From assembly GCF_017254845.1 (NCBI RefSeq), contig NZ_JAFKCU010000002.1, positions 930,001 to 994,000 of the forward strand: 64,000 bases of DNA, given 5' to 3'. The notes under the pieces are model-generated. The model made no database searches, was not told where the DNA came from, and worked only from the letters and a program-made list of their open reading frames with translations. Both the position numbers and the translations under genes were made by a program. Origin of the DNA: Algoriphagus pacificus (GTDB taxonomy: Bacteria; Bacteroidota; Bacteroidia; Cytophagales; Cyclobacteriaceae). Positions 10,414-38,704 of the stretch are shown here, in pieces. Numbering within the stretch: the stretch's first letter is position 1; each line of letters starts with the position of its first letter.

Positions 10414-10434
10414 CCAGTCATAAAGAAGAAATAA

Positions 10435-10450
10435 GGTGACTTTTATCACC
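10435..10450. promoter_or_regulatory. Crp/Fnr-type operator between sqr and the giant-protein operon
   Basis: GGTGACTTTTATCACC contains GTGA-N6-TCAC, the symmetric pattern bound by Crp/Fnr-family regulators (a TGAY-N4-RTCA core is also present). It is centred about 43 bp upstream of the predicted sqr start point. On the other strand it lies 31.5 bp before the first TATTTTTT of the giant-operon upstream region, so divergent control is possible. Probable ligand: the regulator encoded at 20225. Confidence 0.75.
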
Positions 10451-10470
10451 TAATAGAAAAAAGTTGAAAG

Positions 10471-10646: not shown

Positions 10647-13600
10647 ATGGAAAAAGACCAGCTGGAATCACTTTTGTCCAATGTGTTCGGACATTTAAAC
10701 GCAGCCAATCCTTCAGACAAAAAACAATGGGAGGCTGGAGTTCCATTATTGGCAAAATCACTTTTAATTCAGAACTCAGCGGAAATTAAACCTGATTCCT
10801 ACAGCTTTGAGAATTCCGAATTATTCTTTCAGAACCGTATTCCTAAAAGCAAAGTTGAGCTGATTAGGAAGGAGGCTGAAAAGGCTAAAATCAGTGAAAA
10901 AGACCCCCAGTTTAAAGCTTTCGTGCGAGATGTTCCTGTCAGGACTACGCAAATCAAAACGAGTGTTCCTAATTGGGCTGCAGGGGCCAAAGTCGAAAAG
11001 TCAATTGGTCCAATGACACGAATTGATGGAAGAGTGATCACAATTGATTTTTTTCGGATTACTAAACTGATTGGGATTTATCAGCAAAACAGTAATCAGC
11101 CTGTAATCCTTTTTAAAGCTTCTTTTAAGGAGCCAAAAATAAAAGCAGTAAATGCCCCTCCGGTTGAAGTGTCTCAAAATTACGATGTGGCACCTGGAAG
11201 TTTTTATATAAGAGCGGATATGCTCGCCTCAAATGCTCCAAATACAAGGTATGTAGGATTAAAAGTAAAAGACGGTAAAATTCAACTAAGTGCAAATCCG
11301 GTTTTGCAAGGAGAAAAATTAGTCCTAGCCGCCAATACGGGAGTTCAGGTAGCCTTGGATTTGGATCAAACTCCAGATCCAGCAGATGCAAAAAAGAAAC
11401 ATGGAAGAGATGCATTTGAGGCAAAAGTTCAAACTCCGGATACACTGAAGTTTTCTTTTTCTGGAGCCTCAAAAGCACAAATTAGTGAAAGTAGACCAGC
11501 TCAATGGACTGTATATGGCCAGAAAGCCTCATTTAGCAAATTAAACAAGGTTCCTACTTACAGCGATCAACTTTCCCGAATGTTGATACCATATGCTTGT
11601 TCTAATCAGTCTTTTGAACCCAAAAAACAAAAGAGCCCGATGGTGGAGCTTTCAGAAAGTGGCGATGTGAAGGCTTCTTGGTGGGCGATTCCTGCAGCCG
11701 AACTTGACATAGCTGCGCCCCTAGAAGTTGCAGGCTGTGGTGGATTGCTTCAAGAACTGAAGCCAGGATTGAAATTTAAATGGAAAGGACTTCAAGGAAA
11801 AAATCTGAAATTGGATAAACCACAGATTCTTGTCGAAAATGGAAGAATTGGGATTACTGATTTAACCTCAGATGGGGAAGGGGCTTTTCAGGAAATTGAC
11901 CATTGGAAGGATGATTTAAACGAATATGGCACCTCGATTTCTCTTTCTTTAAATAAGAGTGCCTTATTCCTTTATAATTCCTTGTCAGAAGGAATTGAAA
12001 TGCTGGTTGGTTTAGCAAATGCCCAGATAAAAGTGGATAGGCCTTTGCAAGTCAATGGACTGCCTGTAGGAGTGAAAACCAAAAACTCTGCTTTAGTTTT
12101 GGCAGGCTCAGATACCAATAAACTGATTTACCTATTTGATGATAATATTTTATGGGATAATAAGCTCCCTTTTGATAAGGTTCCGAAGTTTAAAAGCCTA
12201 GCTATAGCCTTAGAAAATGCCTTGTTTACCATCTCCCCTGTAAATGGAGCTTTGGTGTTTGGGGAATGTTCCGAGGACTGGACAAAAATCATCAAAAGCC
12301 AGACTTTTTTGGTATTCGGAATGCTAAGCTATATGCCAACTCTTCCGGATCCTTATGTAGCAAATTTTGGTATTCTGGCTAGACAGTTTGGAGACAAAAG
12401 AAAAGGTCTTGATGGAATCAAGAGTTGGCTGGTTTGTCAGATTACCCAAGATCCTGGATCAGAGGAGCTAGATAAGGTTACCGTCAATTTTCACTTCGGA
12501 CCAACAAATCAATCTTCGGTTTCAAGCCAAGGTGATACTGCCTCTAGTAGCATTGCTTGGGACAATCTTCAAGCTCAACCAGTGGTTGAAACTTTGAAAT
12601 CAAGCGCAGCTGCTTCTAGAGACAATGGCTTGCCTCCTTATGATGCACAGCTACAGCCATTTACCCGACTATTTGATATGGAGTATTTTGCGCTTTTGGA
12701 TGTTAGTTCAAATGCGAATCAACTCGGTGTCAGCATGGGATTCCCTAGAGATCGGAGAGTTGTAACAGGTGTAGCGCATTCTGTAGGAGATGGGCAAGCA
12801 GCCATTTCCCAAGCTGATAATCAAATGATTTCGGTGGAGGGAATGGAGGTTATTGCACAAGGAGCAATGACTCGTTTGTTTATGATGCCTCAAGTCGCTT
12901 GGGAACCGATTTTTAATTTGACTCCTCCCGGAACAGGGAAGCCAGGAGATCCTCCAGTCTTTTTTAATTATTATCCGAATGATGGTGGGCCTACACGATT
13001 TGTAAACAATCATCCTGAGAGAATTGCCTTGTCTCCAAAACCATTGGTAGACTTTATTCTAGATAAATACAAGAAAAAGGAAACTCCTGTCAATACTTTA
13101 TTTACGCTGCCTTTTGGTTTAAAGGCAATGGCTGAGCTTTCTCACACCAATAGCCGAGAGACCATCAAACCTAAGTTAGATAACATTCGGCCCAATTTCC
13201 CGAATGATATGCAAGGTGGAATTCAAATCAGAGCCACTGCCGGAGATTATGGTAAGAAATTCCCTTCCGAACCCAAGAAAAATGACTTGCCGATGTTTGC
13301 AGGATTTACCGTCCAATTGGCAAATGTTTTAGGAATGAATGGGAATCCAACCGGAGCCAGTACTTTGGGTCAGAGTGTCACGGAAATTTTCAACGGTGAG
13401 TTTTTTGTCAATCAGGGAAATCCATCTCAAATAACCGAGAGAGGTGTCCCTGTCAGTAAAATTGATTTTTCTGGATATGGTGCCAGTACCTTTAGTAATT
13501 GGCTAAGTCCTTCTGCTGCTATCGCACAGACTAGTCAGGCTCGATTTGATGTGATGCTGGGTAGAACTGGTCATGAAGTAATTCAAGTGAAGAGTATCGT

Positions 13601-15938
13601 TTATCCTTGGGGAATTCGTGTTGTCCGGACAATTACAATTTTTAGAACAAGTTCAGGATTTGTTTATCGAACAGACAGTGGCTGGCAACCAGAATCTGAT
13701 GGTTTGTTTGACTTCAGATATAAATACATCGATAAAACCCAGGCAGGCAATCCTGAAGTTGAGGAAACACCTTATGAATTGCATCCTGGCACATTAAGGG
13801 GGCTTTATTCTATCAGCAATATCAAAGAAGATGGAACTGTTGCTGATTTTGTCACCAAGAATGTCATTGCACATAATCAAGAATACATCAATGTTTTTGG
13901 AGAAAAGGTTAAAAATTCGGGAGCACAATTTGACCAAGAAGTAAAATGTGTTGCCGTCTATTTTGATGCTGATGTGGCGGTGGAAAATTTGGTTCAAGGC
14001 CATAAAAATGGTAAAACCCCAGCTAAAAAGATCCTAGGCTACGTTCAGCTTTCTCCTCCAGGAGTTCCTTTGAATTCCTCCCAGTTAAGAGCCTTGTTAA
14101 ACCTCCAGGGAGGATTGATGGGTGGAGATATTAACTGTGTCATGGATGTAAATAATTCAGGTCAGCTCATGCAGATCAACCGGTTTGATATTTCGCATTC
14201 CGAGAAACCAGGAAATGCCTCTGAAGATCCGATTTTTGTCGCGGCTACCAGAGGTTCAGTTTTATTGCCAAAAGATGGAAGCTGGAGTATGGTTCAGCAT
14301 GAAACTGGCTCTGGAGAAGTCACACCGCTTCCTCCTCATATTCCAATTCCTTTGATACGAATCGGAGAATGGCAAAAGGAAATTGTGGTCAAAGCTTCAG
14401 ATGTGACCAATAACCTACTAAGATTGGCTCACCCACTTGAAATTCTCAGAAACCCTGAAGAAGCCACCATTAATTATGGATTCCTCCAAAGTACTTCGAC
14501 ACAAAAGGCCTTATTCCTAACACCTAGCTATAAAAAAGGCATCAGTAAACTCATGAGTAAGACACCGCCGATTTTTTCGGATGCTTACAAACTGATGAAT
14601 GGAAGCAGTATTTTTCCAAATATTGGGGATGCTTATTCCAATTACGGAAAAGCAATGGCTCTACTGGAAGGTGTAGATGAGCAAGGAAATAAAGTCAAAG
14701 CCTTTATCGAAAATGCTGCACAAGATGGAGGAAGAAAAGTCCTCGAATTGATGGAAATAACTGCCAAGGAAGAGGCTGGCAAAATTGTAGATAAGGGATT
14801 TAAGCTACTTTCTGGAGAAGCTAACTCTGCCTTGAATAAAGCACTTGCTTTTGATGTTCCGAATTTTGACCCACTTTACCTGGTCAATATGGATTCTCTG
14901 AAAATCTACATTGAATATAAAGCCACCCAAGGTGAGCCAAATAACAAACAGTATGTCGATTCAAAGCTCAATTTTGACGTAGATTCTTTTGCCAATGATT
15001 TGGCGGATACCTGGAAAAGCAAGGTAAACAATGTTGGAATGGTCGTAGACTTGGGGCCTTTTGAGCGCTTGATAACTATAAAAGGAAATTTTGATGCAGG
15101 AAAAGGGAAGGAAACTGGCTATGCTGGAGATAAAGATAATCCTGGGCCGTTAGATGGAATTCCTTTACCTGAAGTAGAATTCAGTGACGCGTTAGAGCCA
15201 GTAATCGAACTTTTACAAATGTTGGCCGCTCTAAGTACTGGAGATTATGGAGCGGTAATGCGAAAAGGACTTCAGATCGCGATGAGTAACGCAGGCGAGA
15301 TTTGGGAGTATAAATTCGAAGCTACCAAAGAGATACCGCTGATCCGGTTCCCCCCTGAGGACTCAGTATATAACTCACCGCAATGTCCACTAAGGTTAGA
15401 GGCGGGATTGGCGCTTGGAGTGTATTTTAATGCAGCCTTAAAAGTTACTTCTGATCCGAAACAGCTTTTGCCTACTGCCGGTGGATTTATCCAATTTAAC
15501 GGTGGCCTGGAAGTCATGTGTGTGACTGTTGGTGCAGCGACGATTTATGCCATAGGATCTGTAGAAGTGAAGATTGCCTGCGACACTAAAATTGGTCCGA
15601 GCCTGATGATGAAGTTTGGTTTCGGGGCTAATATTTCAGTAGGACTTCCTGTGGTCGGAAATGTGAGTGTGACTTACATGGTAGGATGTGAGATGTATGT
15701 GGATGCGAATACCTTAGAAATAACGGCATTTATGTTGTTTAAAGGGCATGCAAACATTCTTGGCGGTATTGTCAGTGTGACAATCTACATAGAAGCGAGT
15801 GGTTCTGTAAAAAGGATATCCAGTCCAGAGCGTACAGATTGTACAGCCTCTGTGACTTTTGGCTTAGATATCAGCATCTGCTTTATCATTAATATCAGCT
15901 TCGAAGAGACTTGGCAAGAAAGTCGTCAAATCGCATAA
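10647..15938 (+). CDS. Giant protein of unknown function (1763 aa), first gene of a two-gene operon
   Basis: Not recognised. 1763 aa with no signal peptide, no T9SS-type C-terminal domain, no helical membrane segments and no RHS or Ig repeats that I can see. The N-terminal third is mixed. The middle (about residues 900-1060) contains FSGYGASTFSNWLSPSA and a strand-rich stretch around VIQVKSIVYPWGIRVVRTIT. The last ~190 residues (about 1576-1763) are Gly-rich and look like a run of amphipathic beta-strands with five or more Cys, ending FEETWQESRQIA. The ATG at 10647 is the only sensible start. The next gene begins 22 bp after the stop. Base composition matches neighbours, so there is no sign of recent transfer. 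It could be a structural or export-machine component, or a toxin-like protein; nothing in the sequence decides this. Confidence 0.9.
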   Translation: MEKDQLESLLSNVFGHLNAANPSDKKQWEAGVPLLAKSLLIQNSAEIKPDSYSFENSELFFQNRIPKSKVELIRKEAEKAKISEKDPQFKAFVRDVPVRTTQIKTSVPNWAAGAKVEKSIGPMTRIDGRVITIDFFRITKLIGIYQQNSNQPVILFKASFKEPKIKAVNAPPVEVSQNYDVAPGSFYIRADMLASNAPNTRYVGLKVKDGKIQLSANPVLQGEKLVLAANTGVQVALDLDQTPDPADAKKKHGRDAFEAKVQTPDTLKFSFSGASKAQISESRPAQWTVYGQKASFSKLNKVPTYSDQLSRMLIPYACSNQSFEPKKQKSPMVELSESGDVKASWWAIPAAELDIAAPLEVAGCGGLLQELKPGLKFKWKGLQGKNLKLDKPQILVENGRIGITDLTSDGEGAFQEIDHWKDDLNEYGTSISLSLNKSALFLYNSLSEGIEMLVGLANAQIKVDRPLQVNGLPVGVKTKNSALVLAGSDTNKLIYLFDDNILWDNKLPFDKVPKFKSLAIALENALFTISPVNGALVFGECSEDWTKIIKSQTFLVFGMLSYMPTLPDPYVANFGILARQFGDKRKGLDGIKSWLVCQITQDPGSEELDKVTVNFHFGPTNQSSVSSQGDTASSSIAWDNLQAQPVVETLKSSAAASRDNGLPPYDAQLQPFTRLFDMEYFALLDVSSNANQLGVSMGFPRDRRVVTGVAHSVGDGQAAISQADNQMISVEGMEVIAQGAMTRLFMMPQVAWEPIFNLTPPGTGKPGDPPVFFNYYPNDGGPTRFVNNHPERIALSPKPLVDFILDKYKKKETPVNTLFTLPFGLKAMAELSHTNSRETIKPKLDNIRPNFPNDMQGGIQIRATAGDYGKKFPSEPKKNDLPMFAGFTVQLANVLGMNGNPTGASTLGQSVTEIFNGEFFVNQGNPSQITERGVPVSKIDFSGYGASTFSNWLSPSAAIAQTSQARFDVMLGRTGHEVIQVKSIVYPWGIRVVRTITIFRTSSGFVYRTDSGWQPESDGLFDFRYKYIDKTQAGNPEVEETPYELHPGTLRGLYSISNIKEDGTVADFVTKNVIAHNQEYINVFGEKVKNSGAQFDQEVKCVAVYFDADVAVENLVQGHKNGKTPAKKILGYVQLSPPGVPLNSSQLRALLNLQGGLMGGDINCVMDVNNSGQLMQINRFDISHSEKPGNASEDPIFVAATRGSVLLPKDGSWSMVQHETGSGEVTPLPPHIPIPLIRIGEWQKEIVVKASDVTNNLLRLAHPLEILRNPEEATINYGFLQSTSTQKALFLTPSYKKGISKLMSKTPPIFSDAYKLMNGSSIFPNIGDAYSNYGKAMALLEGVDEQGNKVKAFIENAAQDGGRKVLELMEITAKEEAGKIVDKGFKLLSGEANSALNKALAFDVPNFDPLYLVNMDSLKIYIEYKATQGEPNNKQYVDSKLNFDVDSFANDLADTWKSKVNNVGMVVDLGPFERLITIKGNFDAGKGKETGYAGDKDNPGPLDGIPLPEVEFSDALEPVIELLQMLAALSTGDYGAVMRKGLQIAMSNAGEIWEYKFEATKEIPLIRFPPEDSVYNSPQCPLRLEAGLALGVYFNAALKVTSDPKQLLPTAGGFIQFNGGLEVMCVTVGAATIYAIGSVEVKIACDTKIGPSLMMKFGFGANISVGLPVVGNVSVTYMVGCEMYVDANTLEITAFMLFKGHANILGGIVSVTIYIEASGSVKRISSPERTDCTASVTFGLDISICFIINISFEETWQESRQIA

Positions 15939-15960
15939 TTTTTTATAAAAAACTCAGAAC

Positions 15961-18900
15961 ATGGAACCAAGAAGATTATTGTCCCTAATGACTTTTCCTC
16001 AGCGTTTTAATGGAAATACGCTGACTGTAAATATTGTTGTAGTACCAAGAAATACCAATCCATTTGACCCTTGGCCAACAGGTTTGCCTAATCCAGCTAC
16101 TGTGCCTGGATTTGCTGATTTTCAACCGGAATTCAGCTTGTCAATCGTAAAGGGCACGGATGATTTTCCATTAAGCAACGCTACTGCGCCTAGTAGAATT
16201 CCTATTGTGAAAAAGGTGGAAGTCAAATCTGCGACTAACAAATCGAATATTCTTAAAAAGGTAGAGGAAAATGCGCCTCTGAAAGTAACTGATACAAGTG
16301 ATAAGTTGCCTGATCCAGTTCCGGTAGAAAAAAGTATCAAAAAATACTTGCCAATATCCTATCGAGAGCGATTCAATTTTACACAGCCTCGACATCCAAA
16401 TGCCATAACCGATGACGGGTATTCTTGTGCTGTAAGAGATAAAATCCCAACTATTAATTACAAACCAAGAACTACGATGAGTTGGGGAAAAGTCTTTGCT
16501 AACATTCTCCGTCAGCCTTTGCTGGCAAAAGCTTGTGGGATGATCTATGAAGTAGAACTTGAGATAGATCAGACCTGGTTTGAGGAAGGTGGTTATTTGT
16601 ATGCTGATATTATAAATGACCCTTATGCAGCTGCCCAAACAGGACTTTTGGATGAAAACGATGGACCGCTTATTAAGCGATATGCTGCAAAAATTCCAGA
16701 GTTGGTCATGGGTGAAAGCCGTCCTGTTTTCGCTCCAGTTTTATTTCCGGTTTTATATAAAAAACCTTTAGATCCTAGTGAGCCTGTACCTTTAGGCCCT
16801 TGGGATGAATTGTTTATGGAAGCGCAGACTTACAATGATGGTTTTGCGAAAATTGTTCATGCAAATCAACCCGTTTCAGGAAATTTATTAGAAGAAACAC
16901 CTGATGGATTGCCTCCTCAATCTGATTCTGGGATCCGTTTGGGCTGGGATGATGAACAGATTCTGGTTTGGTACCTGAGGCAAATGATTGAGAATCCATC
17001 GGATCAAGGATCTTTGAAAAGACTGGATGCCCCACTTGGTGTAATGGGATACCATATTGATGTTCGTCAAGCTGCGCCAGGAAAAAACTGGGAAAGCTTA
17101 AACAGTATTGAAATCAATGAGGCTGAAAATAAGTTTGCAGGAGATCTAGAGTCAAGCTCAACTGAACTTCCATATCAGGTTTATCCAAATAAAATCTCAG
17201 GGCCAAATAGTGATCACTATTGGTTGCCTATGTATTATGCCCACTGGATTGGAAAAAATCTTGTGACAGAAGATCAGGATGCTTTGGAAATCTATAGAAT
17301 GCATGAAGAGAATGGAGCGACTTTGAATGAGCCACAGAATAAGATGGTTACTCAAAATAAAACCTTGGTGCCGACTCCTTTGGAGACAGAACTTAGATAT
17401 GGGAATACCTACGAGTTCAGGATTAGAATGACCGATATTTCAGGTGGAGGACCTCTACTTTCTGATAATCCATTAAACTCAGCCCCTAGTCCAGAGACGA
17501 GTGTTTCATTTAAAAGGTATGTAAATCCTGCATTGTTGCAAGTTGAAAAGCCTTTGGAGATTAAAAATAATCAGCGGACATATTTTAATGCTTTGAATGA
17601 GGATGAAACTCAGTTTGATGCAAATCCTTCATTTGAAATTAGACGCCCTTTGTTAGAATATCCTGCTGTTGTTTTCACCAATAAATACCAAAGTATTGGT
17701 CAGGATCCTGTATCCATGTTAAAGAATTTGGCTTTCGTGGATAAGATGTTAAAGCCTGCTTTGCCTGATCCAGATGTCAAAAAAGTGAAAGTGAGGGTAG
17801 AGGTGAAATCACTTCGGATGGATACTCAGTTGAGCCAGAAAGGAGATGATAGCTATATCACTTTGTATGAAACCAATAGAGAGTTTCCGGAAGCTTTTGA
17901 TGGGGTCTTAAATATACCGATGGAATTTATCGATGTTCCAGTTTTGAATTTGGGAGAACCTGCAAACCCCTTTTTAAGAGATGATTTATTGATCGATGCT
18001 ATCAATGAGATGGAGGGTTTAGTTTTGCCAACAGGTAGACATATCCGGATTTCACTGAGGGCTGTCGCGGAAAGTGAGGGAGCTCCAGAAAGTTATTTTG
18101 GAATTATAGATGATGAGGAGGATAAGGATAGCCGGTATGGCAAGAATCTTCAATTTATGCTATACAAGGAACCAAGCACTGAATCTGATTTGCTGCAACC
18201 TTTTGAAGCAATAGCAACTGTGCAGGCTTTGTTTTTGAAACCGGATACAGTTCCAACTGTAAAGGGGAATATATTTTCTTCTCTTTTGAGAAGAGAGTCA
18301 GAAGAGGACCAATCTGGAGTGGTGGAGAGACTTGCAAATGCTCTTGGAGTAGAATGTAAAGGACTGACTTTAGTGGCTCCTAAAGGTGAAAGAATTGCAT
18401 TTGGCTGTAATTCTCGAATCCGGCATACTTTAGCTCCAGATGGAAGCTCGATCACCTTTGCCACAAAGGCTGACCTATATAATCACTGGTTAGCAACTTT
18501 GAGTTACAAAATCAACCGGGATTGGGCTTGGGATACATTGGAGGATGTGGCTTTTGTCATAGAAAGAGAATTCAAATTCAGAAAAGACAAAAACACTGAA
18601 TGGAGAAGAAATAGCTATCTGGGAGATATTGAATTAAAGCATACAGTATCATTTGAGGCATTGCAGCCAGACAGATTTGATCGGGTAAATAGAAATTATA
18701 CTCGGATCATTTACATAGATGCACTTGATCCCAAAAATGAATTGAAGCAGAATAATGGGGATTTGAGATTCCCGGATGAATTATGGGCATCTTATAAAAT
18801 CAAACCAAAAGCAAAGCCAAATCATCCTGAATTGGAAGTAATTGAAACAGATCAATTGAGTCTGCCAACTGTACTTCCACCAGCTCAGGTGCCAAAATTA

Positions 18901-20085
18901 GTCAGTGTTGGGATTGCTTTTTCGCCTTATGAAAGGACTGAGGATTACAGTGCTTCAGAGGCAAGGAAACGTTATTTGTGGGTTGAATTTGATAAACCTG
19001 TAGAAAACCCAGATGATACTTACTATTGTCGAATGTTGGCCAATGCACCAGATCAATTACTTTCTGGTAATGATGGGGAGCAATTTGTGCCGCCAGAGGA
19101 GGCTCCAATAAGTCTTGATCCAGAATTGACCAGACAGATTATTCCTGGACAAAGTGATGACAAAGCTGGCATCGGTGCTATGCAGCCTATGACAAAGGCT
19201 GTGGATAGCGACACACATTACATGTTGCCAATCCCTCCCGGAATGCATGCAGAGAGTGCAGAAATGTTTGGGTTTTTCACCTATGAGTTCAGGGTAGGAC
19301 ATGGACACTGGCCTGATAGAGAGGATAATTTGTGGTCAACAGCTCAAGGTAGATTTGGTCGGCCATTGAGAGTCACCGGAATCCAACATCCAGCTCCTAC
19401 ACTCTTATGTTCTCTCAACAGAAATGAAAATCATCTGTATGTAAGTGCGCCATTTGCAAAGGCAGTTTTCAATGGGAAAAATGTGACATCGAAGCCACCA
19501 AGAACTAGTTTGTGGACTTTGGTTTATGCACAGGTTTTCCAAGCTGATGGAAGGGATCACAGAAATATCTTGTTAGGAGAAATAGAAATGAAAATAGGTG
19601 TAAGAATCAATACTGATCCTAAACGGCTCAAGCAAATCAATGATTTGACGCAGCAAGTGTACTTTTCTCCGACCATCGGAAAATATACCACAGGAAGTGT
19701 TTCAATTAACCAAAATTTGATAAGAACAGGAAACCTTATTGCCAGTATCAAAGATGAACATCCTGTGGGAACTGCAGCAGTAACCTCGGAAGACATTGCT
19801 GAAAAGTTGAGGTCTTTAGGCTTACCTGAAGATAGTCCTTTGAGTGTCTTAGTGGTGGAAGTTTTTGGAAATATTACCAACATCCATGATCATTTATCTC
19901 AATACAGAAGTCTTAGAGCTGGAGGTGAAATGAATAATACCATTAATGAAAGTCTGAGGGCAAAAAGGACAGAAACAAACTTGCTTTCTGATATTAGACC
20001 TTTGAGTAGGGGACTCGGCCATTTTAGAATTTTGCGAACTTCGCCGCTTACAAAGGTTCCTTTCGTTTGCTGCCCAACTTGCTAA
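15961..20085 (+). CDS. Giant protein of unknown function (1374 aa), second gene of the operon
   Basis: Not recognised. 1374 aa, predicted soluble, without signal peptide. The N-terminal 130 residues are Pro- and Lys-rich (NPFDPWPTGLPNP, then repeated K/V stretches) and look like a flexible linker. The body seems beta-rich, with possible fibronectin-like segments (LRYGNTYEFRIRMTDISGGGP around residue 480). The protein ends in a Cys-rich tail, VCCPTC. Its ATG lies 22 bp after the first giant gene, and a strong terminator follows 16 bp after its stop, so the two form a closed bicistronic unit and their products probably act together. Large size, lack of enzyme motifs and pairing suggest a structural complex. 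Confidence 0.9.
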   Translation: MEPRRLLSLMTFPQRFNGNTLTVNIVVVPRNTNPFDPWPTGLPNPATVPGFADFQPEFSLSIVKGTDDFPLSNATAPSRIPIVKKVEVKSATNKSNILKKVEENAPLKVTDTSDKLPDPVPVEKSIKKYLPISYRERFNFTQPRHPNAITDDGYSCAVRDKIPTINYKPRTTMSWGKVFANILRQPLLAKACGMIYEVELEIDQTWFEEGGYLYADIINDPYAAAQTGLLDENDGPLIKRYAAKIPELVMGESRPVFAPVLFPVLYKKPLDPSEPVPLGPWDELFMEAQTYNDGFAKIVHANQPVSGNLLEETPDGLPPQSDSGIRLGWDDEQILVWYLRQMIENPSDQGSLKRLDAPLGVMGYHIDVRQAAPGKNWESLNSIEINEAENKFAGDLESSSTELPYQVYPNKISGPNSDHYWLPMYYAHWIGKNLVTEDQDALEIYRMHEENGATLNEPQNKMVTQNKTLVPTPLETELRYGNTYEFRIRMTDISGGGPLLSDNPLNSAPSPETSVSFKRYVNPALLQVEKPLEIKNNQRTYFNALNEDETQFDANPSFEIRRPLLEYPAVVFTNKYQSIGQDPVSMLKNLAFVDKMLKPALPDPDVKKVKVRVEVKSLRMDTQLSQKGDDSYITLYETNREFPEAFDGVLNIPMEFIDVPVLNLGEPANPFLRDDLLIDAINEMEGLVLPTGRHIRISLRAVAESEGAPESYFGIIDDEEDKDSRYGKNLQFMLYKEPSTESDLLQPFEAIATVQALFLKPDTVPTVKGNIFSSLLRRESEEDQSGVVERLANALGVECKGLTLVAPKGERIAFGCNSRIRHTLAPDGSSITFATKADLYNHWLATLSYKINRDWAWDTLEDVAFVIEREFKFRKDKNTEWRRNSYLGDIELKHTVSFEALQPDRFDRVNRNYTRIIYIDALDPKNELKQNNGDLRFPDELWASYKIKPKAKPNHPELEVIETDQLSLPTVLPPAQVPKLVSVGIAFSPYERTEDYSASEARKRYLWVEFDKPVENPDDTYYCRMLANAPDQLLSGNDGEQFVPPEEAPISLDPELTRQIIPGQSDDKAGIGAMQPMTKAVDSDTHYMLPIPPGMHAESAEMFGFFTYEFRVGHGHWPDREDNLWSTAQGRFGRPLRVTGIQHPAPTLLCSLNRNENHLYVSAPFAKAVFNGKNVTSKPPRTSLWTLVYAQVFQADGRDHRNILLGEIEMKIGVRINTDPKRLKQINDLTQQVYFSPTIGKYTTGSVSINQNLIRTGNLIASIKDEHPVGTAAVTSEDIAEKLRSLGLPEDSPLSVLVVEVFGNITNIHDHLSQYRSLRAGGEMNNTINESLRAKRTETNLLSDIRPLSRGLGHFRILRTSPLTKVPFVCCPTC

Positions 20086-20101: not shown

Positions 20102-20133
20102 AAGCTTCTGGTCTAAAACCAGAAGCTTTTTTT
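20102..20133 (+). terminator. Strong terminator of the giant-protein operon
   Basis: AAGCTTCTGGT (20102-20112), a 5-nt loop, and ACCAGAAGCTT (20118-20128) form an 11-bp perfect stem followed by TTTTT. It separates the operon from the crp/fnr gene 91 bp downstream. Confidence 0.92.
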
Positions 20134-20164
20134 AAATCTGTTCTTTTTGAAATCTCTCGCTAAA

Positions 20165-20180
20165 TGTGATTTTCATCACC
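20165..20180. promoter_or_regulatory. Crp/Fnr-type operator at the regulator's own promoter
   Basis: TGTGATTTTCATCACC carries GTGA-N6-TCAC and also a TGAT-N4-ATCA Fnr-like core. Its centre (20172.5) is 29.5 bp before the first T of the -7 element at 20202 and 52 bp before the regulator's ATG, which points to autoregulation. Confidence 0.78.
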
Positions 20181-20201
20181 TTTTCATAGAACAATTGCTT
20201 T

Positions 20202-35923: not shown

Positions 35924-38704
35924 TTAGTATTTTAAGCTATCAAGTTTTGCTTCCGGAATCCATTCTTTCATTTCCTTCAACGCATCATTTGCATAACTGT
36001 CTAAATTGATCCGTTTGGCAGCCTGAATTTTTCGAATCCAAAGCAAAGGATCTCGGTTGAATTGAGAAGCTTCGTTCAATAATTCATATTGAGCAAGTGG
36101 ATCTGAAACCCTTTCTGCTGCGCTTAGGACTAATGGAGTGATGTATGGGTTGGCAGTTAGCTCCTCACTTAAGTTTAACCAATCCAGAAAAGACCCAAGG
36201 GCATCTTTATTTTGCCAATCTGGATTGCTTAAAAACTTATCCAATTCAGGGGTTTCGCCAATTCTTGCTCGAAGATTTTCTGCCAAAATTGTTAGATCAT
36301 CCTTTTCGATGCCATGAGATTTATAGGTTAGAATTCTGATGGCTAAATCAGTTTTCAATTCAGAGTCCGGAAAAGACGTCCAGATATCGAATAAATCTTC
36401 CGGAAAGTATTCATGAAACCTGGCAACAATTTGTAAATAGTCTGAAATCAAACCTTCCTCGTCTCTCAAAAAGCTAGGATAGATTACCTCATACTTTTCA
36501 CTGATTTCATTAGCATTATCTACGAAACCTGCCAAAGTCAAAATCGAAATATGATGTGGTTGAAATGCTTTAAATCCTTTTTCTTCTGCAACCAAAAGCT
36601 CACGGGCTGATTTTTTGAAATCTAGATTTTGGGCTAAAATCTGAGAAGATAAACTTAAATAATAGCCAGCAGAACCGGGATTTCTAAACGCGAGTCCATT
36701 CAGGTTTTTAACAGATTCCATAACTCTTCCGGCGCCAAGACTACGGATCACAGCTGTTTCTTGCAGGTCCATTATATAGTCCATCATATCTTCCCGCAAT
36801 CCCAAAGAGTCAAGAATTGCTAAATCCGAACTTGGATCTTGACGGTCTTTTTCAGAAAATAAATTACGGAAACCCGCTTGAATCAACATCGGACTTGCCT
36901 TGTTTTCTAGCTTTTCTTTTAGATCACTTTTCAAATCATCTGGAGAATAATTTGCAAGGGAGTTATTGGTCGCAAGCTGATTGATTTGATCAATGAGCTG
37001 ATTGGAACTTGTTGAATCTGCTTTTGGACTTCCAAGTTTTGTTTTCAAGGCCAAAAGATTCGAATAAAGGACATCTTTGCCCGATGTATTTTCTTCCAGC
37101 ACTTGAATAGCCTCTGTCAGTTTATTGACTTTGGTGTAAAAGAGGGCCAAGTTATTTGCCAAATATGGATTTTTGGGAAAGAAAGAGAGTCCTCGCTCCA
37201 AATAGAAAATTGACTCAATGACCTTATTTTCCCGATGTAGCCGATTACTCAACAACAAGATATTGTCTACTTGAGGATACTCTGCAAAGCTCTCTTCTAG
37301 GTGTTGCTTGGCTAGAGTCGGTTGATTGATTTGAAAAAGAAGCTGAGCAGTTAGGTTCTTAGCCTTTTCATTCTTCCGGTATTTAAACCAAGAGTTTTCA
37401 TACAAAATACTAGCCTCCAACTTCTGATTTGTCTGATAGAAATAGTCAGCCAGAATATTGTTAGTCATGGCATTGGCTTGGGTCGCAATTACACCTTCAG
37501 CATAAATCGTCAAAACCAAGATTGCCATCAATCCACCAATTCTCAGGTGATAGTAAGGAAGAGAAAAAGGCTTATATAAAATCTCATCGATGGCTTTTCC
37601 TGAATCCATAATGGAAAGGAAATTACTAAAGAGGTAAACGATGAAAAATAGGGAAAAACCGATTTGACTATATAAAAGAACATGCTTTAGCAATTCTTCA
37701 GCAGGTTGGTTTCCTGAAATGAGCAGTTTGTAAACCAACCATAAAGTCAAACCTAAACCTAAGAGATGTAGGGCTTTTAAAATTTGAGGGCTTGCAGCTA
37801 GGTTTGGGATTTGTTTGGTTTTAGAATCAAGAGAAAGCCAACCAAAAGCACCCAAAGGAATAATTAGAAGTAAGGGAGAAAAACCGAAAACAGGGTTGAC
37901 AATGTCACCCATCATTTCCATAAAAAGCAAAAACAAAATTGTGAGATAGCCTAAAGAAATTATGGCTACTTGCCAGGCAATTTTCACCCCGATTTTTCTG
38001 TTGCTCCTTGCCAATAGAATGTAGGAACCTGAAACAATACTGTGTCCATTCCAGAAGATCCAGGCTACAGCAAAACCAAATGCCAAAATTGTAGCGTGCT
38101 CCGCAAGGTAGATTGCCGGGTTTTCAATAGGGCTTAATTGAACCAAAAAGAAAACTGCTAAACTTAAACTAAGCGCATTACTGATCCACTTGATCCAAAA
38201 TGGAAGGTTTTGTCCCCATATGTGAAAGCAAATCACAGAGGCTAAGGAACCTATTAATAGAATGATTAAAGGGATATTGGCGCTGGGACCACCGATGTTT
38301 AGACCATTGAAATTACAAACTGTAAGCAGGACAATCCATCCGATTCCCCCAGCGACGATTGCTAATTTCTTAAAATCTGATAATACCGATAAGAAAGAAA
38401 CAGCTACTAAGAAGACAATTGCTGCAAAAAGCTTTGCCTCTAATGGAAGGGTAGGAGAAGCAAGAGAAAAATATTCCTGGAAAACCAGAAAGTTATCCAA
38501 GGTAATTGGAAAAGAAATCGGACCGATTTGAACCCAATCAAAAGGGATTTTAACTGTATCTAAGAAAGTGGCACTTTCAATAGTCCGATAAGGCTTCGTC
38601 TCAAAAAGAAGATAATAGAGCGCAAAAATACCTCCTGAGATTATTAATAGGAGGCTTGAAAGGGTCGAGAATGAAAATTGAAATGTTTTTCTTTGTTGAT
38701 TCAT
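35924..38704 (-). CDS. Large membrane protein with C-terminal TPR region, unknown
   Basis: 926 aa. Residues about 10-420 contain 10-13 hydrophobic helices; residues about 420-900 are soluble and helical with TPR-like pairs (ADYFYQTNQKLEASILYENSWF, LERGLSFFPKNPYLANNLALFY, TEAIQVLEENTSGKD). Membrane domain followed by TPRs on the far side recalls O-antigen-ligase-like or protein-export scaffolds but no conserved motif was found. The start codon overlaps the gatC stop by one base (TAATG), so it is translationally coupled as last gene of the nfeD-globin-plsC-gatC operon. Confidence 0.75.
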   Translation of the reverse strand: MNQQRKTFQFSFSTLSSLLLIISGGIFALYYLLFETKPYRTIESATFLDTVKIPFDWVQIGPISFPITLDNFLVFQEYFSLASPTLPLEAKLFAAIVFLVAVSFLSVLSDFKKLAIVAGGIGWIVLLTVCNFNGLNIGGPSANIPLIILLIGSLASVICFHIWGQNLPFWIKWISNALSLSLAVFFLVQLSPIENPAIYLAEHATILAFGFAVAWIFWNGHSIVSGSYILLARSNRKIGVKIAWQVAIISLGYLTILFLLFMEMMGDIVNPVFGFSPLLLIIPLGAFGWLSLDSKTKQIPNLAASPQILKALHLLGLGLTLWLVYKLLISGNQPAEELLKHVLLYSQIGFSLFFIVYLFSNFLSIMDSGKAIDEILYKPFSLPYYHLRIGGLMAILVLTIYAEGVIATQANAMTNNILADYFYQTNQKLEASILYENSWFKYRKNEKAKNLTAQLLFQINQPTLAKQHLEESFAEYPQVDNILLLSNRLHRENKVIESIFYLERGLSFFPKNPYLANNLALFYTKVNKLTEAIQVLEENTSGKDVLYSNLLALKTKLGSPKADSTSSNQLIDQINQLATNNSLANYSPDDLKSDLKEKLENKASPMLIQAGFRNLFSEKDRQDPSSDLAILDSLGLREDMMDYIMDLQETAVIRSLGAGRVMESVKNLNGLAFRNPGSAGYYLSLSSQILAQNLDFKKSARELLVAEEKGFKAFQPHHISILTLAGFVDNANEISEKYEVIYPSFLRDEEGLISDYLQIVARFHEYFPEDLFDIWTSFPDSELKTDLAIRILTYKSHGIEKDDLTILAENLRARIGETPELDKFLSNPDWQNKDALGSFLDWLNLSEELTANPYITPLVLSAAERVSDPLAQYELLNEASQFNRDPLLWIRKIQAAKRINLDSYANDALKEMKEWIPEAKLDSLKY

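What the first reader, a model, noticed from the sequence alone, without database searches (positions are those of the whole stretch)
10647..20085. Two-gene operon of giant unrecognised proteins inside the sulfide island
9.4 kb of coding sequence encodes two proteins (1763 and 1374 aa) that lack signal peptides, membrane helices and enzyme motifs. They are 22 bp apart and closed by a strong terminator. The first ends in a Gly-rich beta-strand-like region of about 190 residues with several Cys; the second starts with a Pro-rich linker and ends in VCCPTC. Their 5' region abuts the Crp/Fnr site shared with sqr. No phage-tail, contractile-injection, RHS or adhesin repeats were noticed. A paired pair of this size would be an obvious candidate for a structural complex or a novel cell-surface or defence system.
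Basis: partly seen in the sequence, partly recalled or inferred. Interest (0 to 1): 0.8.

Follow-up and report, generated by a model that had tools for sequence, protein, structure and literature searches.

The report
Mobile two-gene giant protein pair
Two adjacent genes encode giant proteins of an unnamed family that is found, as a pair, in several unrelated groups of bacteria; what they do is not yet known.

Summary
The pair is real: 1763 and 1374 aa, 22 bp apart, closed by a strong terminator. Neither protein has a significant match in Pfam, NCBIfam, PADLOC, PHROGs or PDB sequences. Intact homologues come as a pair: P2 follows P1 in 37 of 39 loci of a genome collection (the other two contigs end there), and 10 of 395 phylum genomes match both strongly. 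Pairs also occur in Brocadia and on plasmids of Chlorohelix, Microvirga and Tistrella. Lone P1 or P2 matches were remnants or partial. Brocadia nests inside Bacteroidota, so the pair has been transferred.

The sulfide/Crp link fails. In 11 of 15 pair-less Algoriphagus examined, the sqr-like gene and crp are directly divergent, mostly with two palindromes between; here the pair sits between those palindromes. None of 17 loci outside Cyclobacteriaceae carries either gene in the held flanks.

The parts
10647..15938 (+). P1, 1763-aa protein, first gene of the pair
   Evidence: ORF; no significant family match; PDB sequence search gave three chance-level rows, E 0.038-0.11; 43 rows aligned, window included
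12636..14756 (+). P1 residues 664-1370, large beta-rich core without a PDB match so far
   Evidence: AlphaFold2 model residues about 101-807, blocks mostly 70-90 pLDDT with low patches at 139-162 and near 381-410; barely tested by the VIA-align list, which covers model residues 988-1188
13542..13715 (+). P1 residues 966-1023, block rich in near-invariant residues (33 of 58 positions)
   Evidence: near-invariant positions in 43 rows
15297..15899 (+). P1 residues 1551-1751, nine long amphipathic strands resembling an outer-membrane beta-barrel
15939..15960 (+). 22-bp intergenic gap
   Evidence: gap at most 60 bp in 35 of 41 loci measured, median 28
15961..20085 (+). P2, 1374-aa protein, second gene of the pair
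   Evidence: ORF; no Pfam, NCBIfam, PADLOC or PDB-sequence match; one chance-level PHROG hit, E 0.13
17515..19392 (+). P2 residues 519-1144, string of Fn3/Ig-like domains by fold
20014..20073 (+). P2 C-terminal tail, LGHFRILRTSPLTKVPFVCC in the window, conserved
   Evidence: alignment of 41 P2 rows; the plasmid rows keep the core of it but differ at the end
20102..20128 (+). intrinsic terminator closing the pair
10434..10451 (.). GTGA-N6-TCAC palindrome that belongs to the sqr-like gene, not to the pair
   Evidence: same 49-50 bp offset from the sqr-like start in 6 of 11 empty sites; in the 14-row upstream alignment it is kept in the window and L035, which have the sqr-like gene there
20164..20181 (.). 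second palindrome, upstream of crp; the other edge of the empty site

Best explanation
P1 and P2 are the two subunits of one complex encoded by a self-contained cassette of about 9.5 kb that is horizontally acquired and often lost. Shown: the two genes co-occur, adjacent and in the same order, in four phyla; they are conserved in sequence; they sit in unrelated surroundings. Inferred from models: the C-terminal ~200 residues of P1 form a long-stranded amphipathic beta-sheet or barrel that engages a membrane or its lipids, while P2 is a chain of Fn3/Ig-like domains that holds or delivers P1. Inferred only: since no export signal is seen, the complex acts inside the cell or after release by another route. 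It is probably an accessory fitness or conflict factor rather than part of sulfide metabolism.
Confidence: 0.4

Rival explanations
1. Intracellular lipid- or pigment-binding assembly: the amphipathic P1 sheet lines a hydrophobic cavity in the cytoplasm, with P2 as scaffold. No membrane insertion and no export.
For: No N-terminal hydrophobic stretch; an ApoB100 row appears among weak Foldseek hits, E 0.045.
Against: The ApoB row has prob 0.10 and rmsd 41, so it is not evidence of kinship; VIA-align rows are dominated by outer-membrane barrels.
Confidence: 0.2
2. A released conflict factor (toxin-like or antagonistic complex), freed by lysis or by another route and acting on neighbouring cells.
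For: Patchy, transferred distribution; two near-identical Chitinophaga loci carry a TcA-like gene about 1 kb upstream; a Tle1-like phospholipase gene lies just upstream in G138.
Against: Each of those neighbours was seen in one lineage only; TcA-like (PF18276) occurs in 3 of 23 pair-bearing genomes and 0 of 12 pair-less ones, and no P1 or P2 match lies in the stretches fetched around it in the two non-Chitinophaga genomes; the P1 C-terminus is conserved rather than polymorphic among the rows shown, Microvirga and Tistrella being divergent.
Confidence: 0.2
3. Anti-phage defence system.
For: Two-gene cassette, mobile; some loci adjoin defence-like genes: weak JetD/Lmu-like hits in L037 and a strong type I restriction-like hit in L065.
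Against: No PADLOC match to either protein; only isolated defence-like neighbours among the eight scanned; no recognised nuclease, ATPase or sensor domain.
Confidence: 0.1
4. Part of sulfide handling regulated by Crp/Fnr.
For: sqr-like gene in the held stretch of 12 of 26 Cyclobacteriaceae loci, window included.
Against: 0 of 17 other loci; 11 of 15 pair-less genomes have both genes, 9 of these 11 with two palindromes, without the pair; palindrome not kept upstream of P1 in relatives without the sqr-like gene there.
Confidence: 0.04

Closest known systems
Outer-membrane beta-barrels (CymA, OmpG, autotransporter translocators)
   Same: P1 1551-1751 superposes on about 160-185 residues of barrel strands, with strict amphipathic alternation in 8 of 9 strands
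   Different: 5-12% identity, nine modelled strands rather than the 12-14 of these barrels (number recalled), no N-terminal hydrophobic stretch, joined to about 1550 other residues
Fn3/Ig-like multidomain proteins (fibronectin, contactin, C5a peptidase Fn domains)
   Same: P2 519-1144 looks like consecutive beta-sandwich domains
Tc toxin complexes (TcA-like gene beside the pair in Chitinophaga)
   Same: Giant size; physical proximity in two near-identical loci
   Different: No Pfam match of any kind in P1 or P2; not adjacent in the other loci searched

Membership tests
Outer-membrane beta-barrel proteins | closed membrane beta-barrel fold | tested here: inconclusive
Outer-membrane beta-barrel proteins | N-terminal export signal | tested here: not met
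   no N-terminal hydrophobic stretch by hydropathy scan; no dedicated signal-peptide predictor was available
Fn3/Ig-domain proteins | Fn3/Ig domain sequence profile | tested here: not met
   0 Pfam families at E 1 or less for P2; none of Fn3/Ig kind for three distant P2
Fn3/Ig-domain proteins | Fn3/Ig sandwich fold | tested here: inconclusive
Tc toxin complex | TcA, TcB or TcC sequence domains | tested here: not met
   no Pfam match in P1 or P2
Tc toxin complex | constant genomic partnership with a TcA gene | tested here: not met
   PF18276 in 3 of 23 pair-bearing genomes and not in the own genome; beside the pair only in two near-identical Chitinophaga loci
Contractile injection system part or cargo | phage/tail family match | tested here: not met
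   no PHROG at significance; one hit for P2 at E 0.13
Contractile injection system part or cargo | co-occurrence with a sheath gene | tested here: inconclusive
   PF04984 at E 0.001 or less in 18 of 23 pair-bearing and 10 of 12 pair-less genomes (22 of all 35 over the family's cut-off): no association in this small sample
Known anti-phage defence | match to a PADLOC model | tested here: not met
   0 families for both proteins at E 1 or less

The most novel reading that the evidence does not exclude
A previously undescribed kind of two-component giant machine, spread between phyla as a two-gene cassette, in which a protein without an export signal carries a membrane-inserting or lipid-carrying barrel and an Ig-chain partner loads or positions it.
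Probability: 0.25. Interest if true: 0.8.

Novelty: categorically new. Interest (0 to 1): 0.55.

Why it matters
About 3100 residues of coding capacity are conserved and moved between Bacteroidota and Planctomycetota and found also in Chloroflexota and Alphaproteobacteria, yet none of the family libraries searched names them. A function is likely waiting to be found. The pairing, the cultured hosts (Algoriphagus, Chitinophaga) and the empty sites in close relatives make it directly testable. If the barrel reading is right, it would be an outer-membrane-like fold in a protein made without an export signal.

Tried and rejected
Sulfide/Crp regulon: rejected on empty sites and lineage restriction. 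Phage or viral origin: no tblastn match of P1 in phages, no relative of P2 in viral contigs (four stretches matched a pattern, none confirmed), BFVD Foldseek hits of P1 diffuse, three at E 0.001 or less with rmsd 35-38; P2 was not searched in phages nor P1 in viral contigs. Contractile injection: no association seen. Tc partnership: rejected as general. P1-P2 common ancestry: hhalign between segments found nothing beyond segments that overlap by construction. Defence: no model match. Distant homologues did not help: of six proteins or pieces from the plasmid loci, four gave no Pfam family and two only chance-level DUF hits, E 0.15 and 0.27. Literature: five answered searches listed nothing that by title or abstract opening describes this pair; only search listings and abstract openings were seen, no paper was read, and the library lacks most subscription journals. 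VIA-align lists are a second look at Foldseek hits, so folds absent from them are not excluded; the P1 core and the P2 N-terminal half are barely tested. The tree used 28 P2 rows that I chose; the deepest rows have long branches and its root is for drawing only. Surveys of Chloroflexota and Pseudomonadota genomes were not done.

Full report
OBSERVATION. Two long ORFs, 10647-15938 and 15961-20085, lie 22 bp apart. They match nothing in Pfam or NCBIfam or PADLOC at E 1 or less; PHROGs gave one chance-level hit for P2, E 0.13. PDB sequence searches gave three chance-level rows for P1 (E 0.038-0.11) and none for P2, and none for the two alignment profiles. A strong terminator follows.

PAIRING. 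A genome-collection search with P1 returned 39 loci. P2 follows in 37; in L049 and L050 the contig ends just after or inside P1. In a sample of 395 phylum genomes (the same handles in both searches) P1 was seen in 12, among them a broken piece in G213 and a weak row in G232, and P2 in 14, four of them near E 0.001; 10 genomes, the own one included, have strong matches to both. The gap between the genes is at most 60 bp in 35 of 41 loci measured; the largest, 1020 bp in Tistrella, arises because its P1 gene is split between frames. Hosts include Algoriphagus, Mongoliibacter, Indibacter, Pararhodonellum, Chitinophaga, Paraflavitalea, Terrimonas, Ferruginibacter, Agriterribacter, Gelidibacter, Kriegella and Candidatus Brocadia, and plasmids of Candidatus Chlorohelix, Microvirga and Tistrella. 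Gelidibacter has a second, divergent pair. Exceptions: a partial P2 match on a Microvirga sp. VF16 plasmid without a P1 match (not followed), and remnants in G213, G408 and G517. Within the window's genus 28 of 73 genomes have a P2 match; one of these (G408) is only a C-terminal remnant and one (G432) a partial match at a contig edge.

MOBILITY. In a P2 tree of 28 rows Brocadia lies inside Bacteroidota, and the two Flavobacteriaceae lie among Chitinophagaceae, in clades with 100/100 support (root for drawing only). Two of 294 sampled genomes of Brocadia's phylum match, the second being the fusion below. Outside Cyclobacteriaceae no gene besides the pair recurs in four or more loci, apart from scattered members of two common families (c3 in L045 and L053, c4 in L041). 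Fifteen of the 45 Algoriphagus genomes without a P2 match were examined: all 15 have the crp orthologue and feoB, and 11 have the sqr-like gene and crp directly divergent, 174-507 bp apart; the other four show no sqr-like gene in the fetched stretch. In 9 of these 11 intergenic regions two GTGA-N6-TCAC palindromes occur, in two only one. In the window the only two strict matches to that palindrome, at 10434 and 20164, flank the pair. The pair therefore sits in a pre-existing sqr/crp promoter region. In other Algoriphagus, Mongoliibacter and Indibacter it lies on the other side of the sqr-like gene, and several Algoriphagus with the pair lack that gene there. Nearness to it is a feature of one family: 12 of 26 Cyclobacteriaceae loci against 0 of 17 others, some with short flanks.

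A NATURAL FUSION. In a genome of the Brocadia genus (G590) a single 963-aa ORF joins P1 1-487 to P2 936-1378; the P1 564-1763 profile finds nothing else in that genome. Among 11 genomes of the genus three match: the intact pair, this fusion, and a 54-residue remnant. It may be a functional short form, hinting that the P1 N-terminus and P2 C-terminus cooperate, or a relic on its way out.

MECHANISM. The most economical reading is a two-subunit complex in which P1 has a lipid-facing C-terminal sheet or barrel and P2 is a scaffold. The P2 tail, LGHFRILRTSPLTKVPFVCC in the window and nearly the same in most rows, altered at its end in the plasmid rows, may be a docking element; that is a guess. 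Pairing and mobility are shown; constraint is indicated by 345 near-invariant P1 positions in 43 rows and 270 P2 positions in 41 rows and, roughly, by dN/dS 0.03-0.07 in the 3 of 14 comparisons that gave a value. Membrane or lipid contact is model-based; purpose is inference. Catalysis is not excluded, as many charged residues are invariant.

LEADS THAT DID NOT GENERALISE. A TcA-like gene lies upstream in two near-identical Chitinophaga loci, but PF18276 is present in only 3 of 23 pair-bearing and 0 of 12 pair-less genomes, and in the other two positive genomes no P1 or P2 match lies in the stretches fetched around it. A Tle1-like phospholipase gene precedes the pair in G138. Defence-like genes follow it in L037 and L065. 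Contractile sheath-like matches are about as common with and without the pair: 18 of 23 and 10 of 12.

VERDICT. A genuine, unnamed, widely transferred two-gene family. The novelty label refers to the absence of any family it fits in the libraries searched, not to a proven new mechanism.

Noticed in passing
L063:6851-9742 (-): Natural in-frame fusion of P1 N-terminus to P2 C-terminus in a Brocadia-genus genome.
   Followed up: partly
L042:66-8786 and the matching gene in L044: Giant TcA-like gene (2906 aa, PF18276) about 1 kb upstream of the pair in two Chitinophaga.
   Followed up: partly
L037:20166-24821: Genes with weak Lmu/JetD-like hits directly downstream of the pair; by gene sizes and order a similar set follows in L032.
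   Followed up: no
L062:6464-15646 (-): Gelidibacter carries a second, divergent pair (1709 and 1345 aa) beside its main one.
   Followed up: partly
L081 (G464:C84:24256-24360): A 35-residue match to the P2 tail region lies on a different contig of the Brocadia genome that holds the intact pair (E 1.9e-4); perhaps a remnant.
   Followed up: no
window 10434 and 20164: Two GTGA-N6-TCAC palindromes mark the upstream regions of the sqr-like gene and crp; the only two strict matches in the window.
   Followed up: yes
L066:7452-8513: Tle1-like phospholipase gene (PF09994) just upstream of the pair in G138.
   Followed up: no
window 35924-38704 (-): A 926-aa ORF with no Pfam match at E 1e-4 or less.
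   Followed up: no
L059:13123-17819: The Tistrella P1 gene is split between two frames; a full-length P2 ORF follows.
   Followed up: partly
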